A DNA stretch of 64,000 nt from Diploscapter coronatus. Taxonomy: Eukaryota; Nematoda; Chromadorea; Rhabditida; Rhabditidae. Within the stretch, counting starts at the first letter, position 1. Each line of letters starts with the position of its first letter. The notes under the pieces are model-generated. The model had not been told where the DNA came from. It ran no database searches and worked only from the letters and a program-made list of their open reading frames with translations. The stretch is taken from assembly GCA_964036155.1 (NCBI GenBank), contig OZ038422.1, forward strand, positions 22,281,201-22,345,200, read 5' to 3'. Of the stretch, positions 50,912-52,375 are shown piece after piece. The translations under genes were made by a program, and so were the position numbers.

Positions 50912-52375
50912 ATGCGGTTGATTGCATTAGTTGCAATCTTTGGATGCCTGATAATATTGGTCGCAAGTGGAATAATCAGCAACTCGGAAAGACGATTGTT
51001 CAAAAGACAAAAATACGCAGAGCCACCTAAACAGTCAAAAAATCTGTTAGCGAATCTTGGAAATACTCTGCCAATTATTAGCGACAGGGTAAAGATAAAT
51101 TTGTGGCATTTACATTATAATAGTGATATAATTTGGAAAATGAAAAAAAAAACGTCATTTTGAAGCTAATATTGCGTTCTTTCTCACATATATATATTTC
51201 ATAATTGCACCCTCATACTCGAAAGTTTCGAATTAATTTAGCGGATATGCTCATGACGTTTGCGTCGACGTAGTTAATACAAAATTAGATCATGTAAATA
51301 TTTTGATATACCTTAGAAATTAGTTAGGCTGACTTTAACTCAATCACTTTAACATTGGACAATTGATCGTTTTAAATTTAGCAAAGCTCAATGAGTCAAT
51401 TGAATGGGTGTGGCACCACTCTCTTAACTAGAGATACGGCCAAATCCGGGTAATGCAAAGAAAATTTCAATAATTTTTGCGGCTTAAAAATAAATATTAA
51501 ATTTAATTCAGTTCAAGTTTGGCTGGTAAAGGTCAAATTGCTCAAGCTGTTGCCGGTGGTCAACTCTTCATAAAATTGCACAAAGTAAATGGAAATGCAA
51601 GTGGTCCCTTCAAATGTCAAATTGATACAGCTGGAGGAGGCAATAATTACAAATCGCTTTCGCTGTCTAATCAAAAATTTGGTATGATTTGAAAATATGA
51701 GTCACTTGTAAAGCTTAAAAGCTAAAAATCTTTATAAAATAATATAATTTCAGGCCAATCCTCTATGGCCGTTACAATTCCTTCTGATATAAAATGCACG
51801 GTAATTTTAACATCATATAATTTGAAAATGCAAGTAAAACTATACATTATTCATCTAAATTTCTGCTAATTGATGAAATTTCTCAAATAAATTAATACAT
51901 CATGCATTTTAGGGCAGTTATGGAGGCAAAGAAAATGTAAGTATTGCTTGGAACAATTTAGTAATTTATTTTGGTCACTGTATGAAATTTATTTTCTCAA
52001 TACTAATTGCAATCCATGGAAATAACTGGGTTTTCTCCCTCTAAGGAATCAGACAAATTAAAATTGGTCTAAATAACAATAGTTAGATCTATGACTTATT
52101 GTTTCTTTCTTTTTTTTTTTTTTTTATAAATATTCATAAAAACTAATCCAATAAAACATAATCCACAACATTCATTTTTAGATATGCCTGATGAGATGTC
52201 AGAATTCTGCAATTAACGGACCATGTATGTCAATTAATTTTCTTATCAAATAGATGTTATTTTTACAGTTGGCGGTTGCATTCCATTTGAACTAATTACA
52301 TCCCTTAGAGCGGTAACTCCTAAAAATTATTCCTTGTAAAATTTATATGATTCAAAATTATTTTAGGGTTTCTGA
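50912..52375 (+). CDS. Secreted gEgh16/MAS-family protein (fungal-type), spliced
   Basis: Small secreted protein of the fungal gEgh16 (Egh16/MAS, DUF3129) family; the molecular activity is unknown. Exons: 50912-51088, 51382-51449, 51512-51681, 51754-51800, 51913-51936, 52182-52224, 52269-52312, 52367-52375; 582 nt, 193 residues, all phases agree. A hydrophobic signal peptide at 1-20 (RLIALVAIFGCLIILVASG) is followed by a basic stretch, then family hallmarks in order: NGCGTTL, GQIAQAVAGGQ, HKVNGNASGPFKCQIDTAG, CTGSYGGKENICLMRCQN and NGPFGGCIPFE. These cysteine and glycine motifs match what I know of fungal appressorial Egh16/MAS proteins. The copy is shorter between the GCG motif and the core than typical fungal members. 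Introns and the TTTCAG-ATG start are nematode-like, so it is integrated and apparently intact. Horizontal origin is an inference. AATAAA at about 52497. Confidence 0.8.

What the first reader, a model, noticed from the sequence alone, without database searches (positions are those of the whole stretch)
50912..52375. Fungal-type gEgh16/MAS gene with nematode introns: likely horizontal transfer
The spliced 193-residue product carries the ordered hallmarks of the fungal gEgh16 family (GCGTTL; QIAQAVAGG; SGPFKCQIDTAG; CTGSYGGKENICLMRCQN; NGPFGGCIPFE), a signal peptide and eight nematode-style exons. I know this family only from fungi, where members are secreted around host-surface penetration. An intact, intron-bearing copy between ordinary nematode genes would be an old, domesticated transfer and possibly a new effector-like or cuticle/surface protein class in this animal.
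Basis: partly seen in the sequence, partly recalled or inferred. Interest (0 to 1): 0.88.

Follow-up and report, generated by a model that had tools for sequence, protein, structure and literature searches.

The report
Nematode gene borrowed from nematode-trapping fungi
A nematode carries an intron-bearing gene for a probably secreted protein whose main part appears to come from the fungal lineage that includes nematode-trapping fungi, joined to a home-grown promoter and secretion signal, so a prey animal seems to have taken over a relative of its predators' infection proteins.

Summary
The closest named relatives are Orbiliomycetes, the class of nematode-trapping fungi (Dactylellina haptotyla, 51% identity). 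Trees place the protein inside them (15-row set 99/95, Orbiliomycetes 100/96). AU tests reject a place outside Ascomycota (p 0.0002), but not clearly one just outside Orbiliomycetes (p 0.07). The gene is a chimera: promoter, splice acceptor and signal-peptide-like exon match a dispersed nematode family (18 copies examined, 17 reaching the ATG); exons 2-8 align throughout with Dactylellina residues 68-216. The fungal N-terminus, with the LPMO-type histidine, and the tail are gone; all six cysteines remain and conserved positions are kept preferentially. Egh16 exons were found on only one of two homologous chromosomes, in a 7.5-8.3-kb block at an inversion breakpoint. The genome resembles Diploscapter (inferred). 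Expression and function are untested; I favour a secreted, non-catalytic binding protein, perhaps a decoy against trapping fungi.

The parts
50173..50911 (+). promoter/5' region shared with a dispersed nematode family (most copies match from about 50264-50302 on); ends in AATTTCAG|A before the ATG (possible trans-splice acceptor, inferred)
   Evidence: 18 copies examined, main match 79-93% nt identity, 17 reaching the ATG; in the best two the match runs on to 50990 and 51007; acceptor motif at 13 places in the genome, this gene included; 0 in the backward control
50912..51088 (+). exon 1: signal-peptide-like start, NSERRLFKRQ and 26 more residues; start matches the nematode family, no similarity of the exon to the fungal relative
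51382..51449 (+). exon 2, start of the fungal-derived part (Q60)
51512..51681 (+). exon 3
51754..51800 (+). exon 4
51913..51936 (+). exon 5 (24 nt)
52182..52224 (+). exon 6
52269..52312 (+). exon 7, with GGC of the GPFGGC motif
52367..52375 (+). exon 8 (GF-stop); protein ends 13 residues after GPFGGC, the fungal tail is absent
52523..53196 (.). dispersed, partly inverted repeat starting about 150 bp after the stop
53310..56266 (+). duplicated ET-module gene, with copies elsewhere on both chromosomes
49475..49995 (.). last stretch collinear with C2 on the left; present twice on C2, in opposite orientations
49996..58319 (.). block without a continuous collinear counterpart on the homologous chromosome C2; holds the gene. 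Right edge between 57458 and 58320 (a patch 57458-57674 resembles C2 21971072-21971620)

Best explanation
A horizontally acquired, chimeric, probably secreted nematode protein. Shown by sequence: an Egh16-like (DUF3129/PF11327) domain of Orbiliomycete type lies in a nematode chromosome, is encoded by exons 2-8, and stands behind the promoter region and signal-peptide-like first exon of a dispersed nematode family, with the boundary at intron 1 or in the last 81 nt of exon 1. Shown by alignment: the part of the fungal protein before the first conserved cysteine, with the N-terminal histidine that overlays residue 1 of lytic polysaccharide monooxygenases, and the C-terminal tail are gone, while the six cysteines are kept. 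Inferred: the protein is transcribed from the captured promoter, secreted, cut at the dibasic KR|Q site, and acts outside the cell as a non-catalytic surface- or glycan-binding protein. The likeliest use, on the precedent of fungal relatives that act at the trap-cuticle contact, is binding the nematode's own cuticle or chitin-type glycans, or competing there with the proteins of trapping fungi.
For: Gene and family. Fungal origin: the 22 best hits are 15 named Orbiliomycetes (class checked for three of the species; the rest by genus or recall) and 7 proteins without an organism name; exons 2-8 align throughout with P0118 at 51% (76 of 149 columns), E 1e-48 for that pair; trees with 51 and 48 rows. 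Chimera: exon 1 has no match to P0118 (E 9.1) but its first 79-96 nt match a dispersed family. Truly in the nematode genome: dispersed nematode repeats on both sides, in an 87.7-Mb contig. Constraint: 22 of 26 core columns that are at least 90% conserved in 57 homologues are kept, against 37 of 97 others (Fisher p 3.7e-5); all six cysteines kept. Loss of the N-terminal histidine; LPMO-like fold of the Dactylellina relative, whose alignments begin at His21. Precedent: Trap Enriched Proteins (PMC10662756) and TrsA (PMC12377627), passages seen.
Against: No RNA or protein evidence. Egh16 exons were found on only one of the two homologous chromosomes, as for a young or dispensable gene. No nematode orthologue was found, so selection within nematodes cannot be measured; part of the conservation may date from time in an unsampled fungus. 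Four of 26 highly conserved core residues are changed, one of them a glycine invariant in the 57 homologues. AU tests do not clearly reject a place just outside Orbiliomycetes (p 0.051 and 0.071), outside the 18-row set (0.076 and 0.144) or outside the 14-row set (0.275 and 0.344). Several rows near the nematode are unnamed environmental proteins. The binding/decoy role is a guess from relatives.
Confidence: 0.85

Rival explanations
1. The transfer is real but the gene is a dispensable or decaying passenger: an insertion on one haplotype, spread with repeats, not doing anything selected.
For: Egh16 exons found on C1 only; surrounded by dispersed repeats and a duplicated gene at an inversion breakpoint; protein much diverged (end branch 0.63-0.96).
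Against: Open reading frame through eight exons with all splice sites intact; conserved positions kept preferentially.
Confidence: 0.25
2. The protein acts as a decoy or blocker against nematode-trapping fungi: a catalytically dead relative of a trap/penetration protein that occupies its target on the nematode surface.
For: Nearest named relatives are DUF3129 proteins of Orbiliomycetes, the class of nematode-trapping fungi; in A. oligospora the family is expanded, members are trap-enriched and deletion of TEP1 impairs capture (PMC10662756, passages); loss of TrsA delays entry into the nematode (PMC12377627, passages); the N-terminal histidine is lost and a signal-peptide-like start is present.
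Against: No expression, localisation or binding data; which fungal paralogue's target would be blocked is unknown.
Confidence: 0.2
3. The domain keeps a catalytic (copper oxidase) role with other ligands.
For: H105 of the conserved LHxVN motif is kept.
Against: The N-terminal histidine and the two strands after it are missing; exon 1 is unrelated. TrsA with this histidine changed to alanine had much lower activity (PMC12377627, passage).
Confidence: 0.04
4. Assembly chimera or fungal contamination.
For: None found; no read data available to test directly.
Against: First exon and upstream region belong to a dispersed nematode family, nematode repeats lie on both flanks, in an 87.7-Mb contig.
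Confidence: 0.02

Closest known systems
Egh16-like / DUF3129 protein H072_6834 (P0118), Dactylellina haptotyla
   Same: 51% identity over 149 aligned columns, E 1e-48; same six cysteines, KGQIAQA, INGPFGGCIPFEL, TSLRA
   Different: The fungal protein has an N-terminal histidine (H21), 47 residues from there to the shared part, and a tail of 168 residues; the nematode protein has an unrelated first exon instead and lacks the tail
Trap Enriched Proteins (TEPs) of Arthrobotrys oligospora
   Same: Same Pfam family, secreted, trapping-fungus lineage (PMC10662756, passages)
   Different: Known in the fungus only; trap expression and adhesion role do not apply to, or are untested for, the nematode gene. 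I did not map TEP1 itself onto the tree
TrsA of Arthrobotrys flagrans
   Same: Egh16 domain; speeds entry into nematodes (PMC12377627, passages)
   Different: TrsA has the N-terminal histidine and copper-dependent oxidase activity; the nematode protein lacks that histidine. TrsA itself was not placed on the tree
Acquired biosynthetic genes of bdelloid rotifers used against a fungal pathogen
   Same: An animal using acquired genes in conflict with a fungus (PMC11258130, title and start of abstract in a search listing)
   Different: There biosynthetic genes; here a domain of the predators' own lineage, defence role unproven

Membership tests
Egh16-like (PF11327 / DUF3129) | score over Pfam's gathering cut-off | tested here: met
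   100.5 bits against 25; exons 2-8 alone 95.3
Egh16-like (PF11327 / DUF3129) | six conserved cysteines and GP[FY]G.C motif | tested here: met
Egh16-like (PF11327 / DUF3129) | signal peptide | tested here: inconclusive
   hydrophobic N-terminus read directly; no signal-peptide predictor run; its DNA is of the nematode family
Egh16-like (PF11327 / DUF3129) | complete domain with N-terminal histidine (98% of 57 homologues) | tested here: not met
   match starts at profile position 39 of 183; P0118 H21 not aligned to a His. So: a truncated descendant of the family rather than a full member
Egh16-like (PF11327 / DUF3129) | occurs in fungi only (as stated in PMC6950343) | tested here: not met
   gene is in a nematode chromosome; this is the finding
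Lytic polysaccharide monooxygenase | N-terminal His of the copper brace | tested here: not met
   the protein is not filed as an LPMO
Lytic polysaccharide monooxygenase | beta-sandwich fold | tested here: inconclusive
Trap Enriched Protein | enriched in traps and needed for capture | not testable with these tools
   defined in the fungus; not applicable to a nematode gene
Horizontal transfer, fungus to nematode | nested within the donor group | tested here: met
   within Ascomycota: AU p 0.002 and 0.0002 against exclusion; within Orbiliomycetes: support 99/93 and 100/96, but AU p only 0.051 and 0.071
Horizontal transfer, fungus to nematode | integrated in the host genome, not contamination | tested here: met
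   no reads available
Horizontal transfer, fungus to nematode | absent from other animals | tested here: inconclusive
   no named metazoan protein among listed hits (120 of 333 listed); other nematode genomes could not be searched
Horizontal transfer, fungus to nematode | expressed in the host | not testable with these tools
   no transcript data

The most novel reading that the evidence does not exclude
A prey animal has captured a domain of its predators' trap/penetration protein family, lost its catalytic end, put it behind the promoter and secretion signal of its own dispersed secreted-peptide family, and uses the dead version on its surface to block trapping fungi.
Probability: 0.2. Interest if true: 0.95.

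Novelty: new variant of a known kind. Interest (0 to 1): 0.82.

Why it matters
Egh16-like proteins are described as restricted to fungi (PMC6950343, passage) and as tools for breaching host surfaces, with a marked expansion in fungi that eat nematodes (PMC10662756, passages). An intron-bearing copy in a nematode, from that fungal lineage or its near kin, would be gene flow from predator to prey. It also shows a concrete route by which a foreign gene becomes an animal gene: joining to a ready promoter and signal-peptide-like exon of a dispersed host family. It gives a clean test: does removing it change how easily the worm is trapped? The Diploscapter coronatus genome paper reports 90 genes with homology only to non-metazoan sequences but 'no direct evidence' of transfer (PMC5483258, passages); this would be a well-supported case in what looks like that genus.

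Tried and rejected
Vertical metazoan family: no named animal protein among the listed hits (120 of 333 listed; 41 of 41); searches scored 8000 and 7993 candidates only. Bacterial or archaeal relatives: one scan of genome contigs gave 69 pattern matches, none confirmed. Candidate extra exon at 51242-51293: open in one frame, but 52 nt would break the frame between two phase-0 splice sites, so left out. Remains of the lost fungal N-terminus or tail within 49900-54000: none above chance (pieces of 13 relatives; best E 0.012, itself a match inside exon 3; reversed control 0.002). A second Egh16 copy: the C2 match at 34511886-34512011 is only an exon-1-like stretch (62 nt at 85%); no further convincing exon in the 15.9 kb compared. 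PDB by sequence profile: 12 weak matches, none an LPMO, best E 0.017 to a putative lipoprotein. Foldseek gave no match under E 0.001 (best 0.0047, a polysaccharide monooxygenase); the VIA-align result is a second look at those same candidates. Dispersed family: a crude intron-motif splice of 17 copies gave no clean common reading frame after exon 1, so I do not claim what these genes encode; some may be broken. Prior reports: the lists (8 of 8 papers; 30 of 74; 25 of 57; 10 of 10; 15 of 22) show no title or abstract start about an Egh16/DUF3129 gene in a nematode or about transfer from trapping fungi to nematodes; open-access library only; passages seen of five papers (PMC6950343, PMC12377627, PMC5483258, PMC3828140, PMC10662756), none read whole.

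Rows left out: the tree uses 50 of the 158 proteins then held, plus the nematode; one search also drops P0143, P0149 and P0152 as long or odd rows. A4 holds 57 proteins, some without organism name. The alignment drops nematode insertions, so its nematode residue numbers run 7 low from the first conserved cysteine on, with larger shifts further along; the counts use columns filled in at least 80% of rows.

Full report
What is there. The gene model in the finding is exact. Eight exons between 50912 and 52375, all introns GT..AG with T-rich acceptors, give a 193-residue protein. It begins with a hydrophobic, signal-peptide-like stretch followed by SNSERRLFKRQ, and ends 13 residues after the GPFGGC motif. 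Pfam reports one family, Egh16-like (PF11327), 100.5 bits, E 2.3e-28, from profile position 39 to the end. Searched with the family profile, the whole 169.7-Mb genome gives two matches, both in this gene, one over the cut-off.

Where the domain comes from. A search with the protein alone found one weak fungal relative. Profile searches then found 333 proteins (best 120 listed) and 41 proteins (all listed); each scored only the roughly 8000 candidates sharing most words. In one search, 29 of 41 hits bear organism names and all are fungi; the 22 best are 15 named Orbiliomycetes (Dactylellina, Arthrobotrys, Orbilia; class checked for three species) and 7 proteins without an organism name. Exons 2-8 align over their whole length with Dactylellina haptotyla H072_6834, residues 68 to 216, 51% identity with 15 gap columns, E 1e-48 for that pair. 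Maximum-likelihood trees place the nematode protein inside Orbiliomycetes: with 51 rows, Orbiliomycetes 99/93 and the 15-row set around H072_6834 93/94; with exons 2-8 only and three long or odd rows left out, 100/96 and 99/95. AU tests reject exclusion from Ascomycota (p 0.002; 0.0002), are borderline for Orbiliomycetes (0.051; 0.071), and do not reject exclusion from the 18-row (0.076; 0.144) or 14-row sets (0.275; 0.344). So the donor was an Orbiliomycete or a close relative; more than that the data do not say. The family is spread over chytrid-type fungi, basidiomycetes and ascomycetes, which makes the direction fungus to nematode.

A chimera. Exon 1 (59 aa) has no similarity to the fungal relative (E 9.1). 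Its start, with up to about 740 bp before it (mostly about 610-650), belongs to a dispersed family of this nematode: a genome search with 50000-53000 gave hits at many places (40 of 1031 candidates scored, a second repeat included). I examined 18 copies; the main match is 79-93% identical, 17 of 18 reach the ATG, and in the two longest cases the match runs into codons 27 and 32. The copies share the upstream region, an acceptor AATTTCAG|RATG (motif at 13 places in the genome, this gene included, 0 in the backward control) and a signal-peptide-like exon with a K-R-(Q/E/D) site. Most copies also share sequence after exon 1 with one another, which the Egh16 gene does not. The nematode Egh16 gene thus has promoter, acceptor and secretion-signal exon of a host family, the joint lying at intron 1 or within the last 81 nt of exon 1. 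No remains of the fungal N-terminus or tail were found nearby.

Place in the genome. The assembly has two large contigs, 87.7 and 82.0 Mb, and by subtraction from the total a third of 13,378 bases, the size of a mitochondrial genome. Window 40761-49535 is collinear with C2 21046001-21054388 at 87-91% identity, so C1 and C2 look like homologous chromosomes. This fits Diploscapter coronatus: 170-Mb diploid assembly, 2n = 2, 5.7% heterozygosity on average, with inversions (PMC5483258, passages); the genus is my inference, the record is unnamed, and this region is more diverged than that average. Collinearity stops at 49995, 0.9 kb before the ATG; the stretch 49475-49995 is present twice on C2, in opposite orientations, next to a 1.86-kb piece that is 99% identical between its two C2 copies. 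Collinearity resumes, inverted, at 58320, with a patch at 57458-57674. The block between holds dispersed repeats, the Egh16 gene and a duplicated ET-module gene. No Egh16 exon beyond the exon-1-like stretch was found on C2 (none in 90 kb of C2 around the breakpoint). The C2 stretch facing the right edge could not be fetched.

How it may work. Shown are origin, architecture and what was lost or kept. Inferred: expression from the captured promoter, secretion, cleavage at KR|Q, and a binding role outside the cell. Relatives give the context: in A. oligospora the family is expanded and trap-enriched, and deletion of TEP1 impairs capture (PMC10662756, passages); in M. haptotylum (recalled as the older name of D. 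haptotyla) DUF3129 members are among the genes upregulated in infection (PMC3828140, passages); [quoted passage not shown] A catalytically dead relative in the prey could bind the same surface or glycan and compete, or serve an unrelated structural use, or do nothing; presence on one haplotype keeps the last option open.

What is known. Voshol et al. call the family restricted to fungi (PMC6950343, passage). The lists seen (some capped) showed no report of a nematode member. Animal genes of fungal origin as such are known; a domain of trapping-fungus type in a nematode, joined to the promoter and first exon of a dispersed host family, is the new part.

Noticed in passing
window 50173-51007; loci L032-L049: Dispersed nematode family: about 610-740 bp of upstream sequence, a TTTCAG|RATG acceptor and a signal-peptide-like exon with LEKRQ-like dibasic sites, followed in 15 of 17 copies by one to three similar intron-like stretches of 51-54 nt between very short pieces; one copy (L046) has a glycine-rich stretch. 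It looks like a fast-evolving secreted-peptide family.
   Followed up: partly
G000 C2:34511886-34512011 (L004): Exon-1-like stretch (SGIMSNSERRLEKRQ) on the other chromosome, without a detectable match to the family's upstream region and without Egh16 exons; origin unclear.
   Followed up: partly
window 49475-49995; C2 21067413 and 21523126: Inverted duplicate on C2 (adjacent 1.86 kb 99% identical) at what look like the edges of an inversion between the two homologous chromosomes; window 59000-62000 also has a 97% inverted copy on C1 itself (23362207-23365190).
   Followed up: partly
window 53310-56266: ET-module gene with related copies at four or more further places, on both chromosomes.
   Followed up: no
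P0125, P0136-P0139: Egh16-like proteins of 211-221 aa without organism name and without the long fungal tail, close to the Orbiliomycete group; their organisms are unknown.
   Followed up: no
window 43385-45196: Left neighbour carries topoisomerase II-type domains (TOPRIM_C, DNA_topoisoIV).
   Followed up: no
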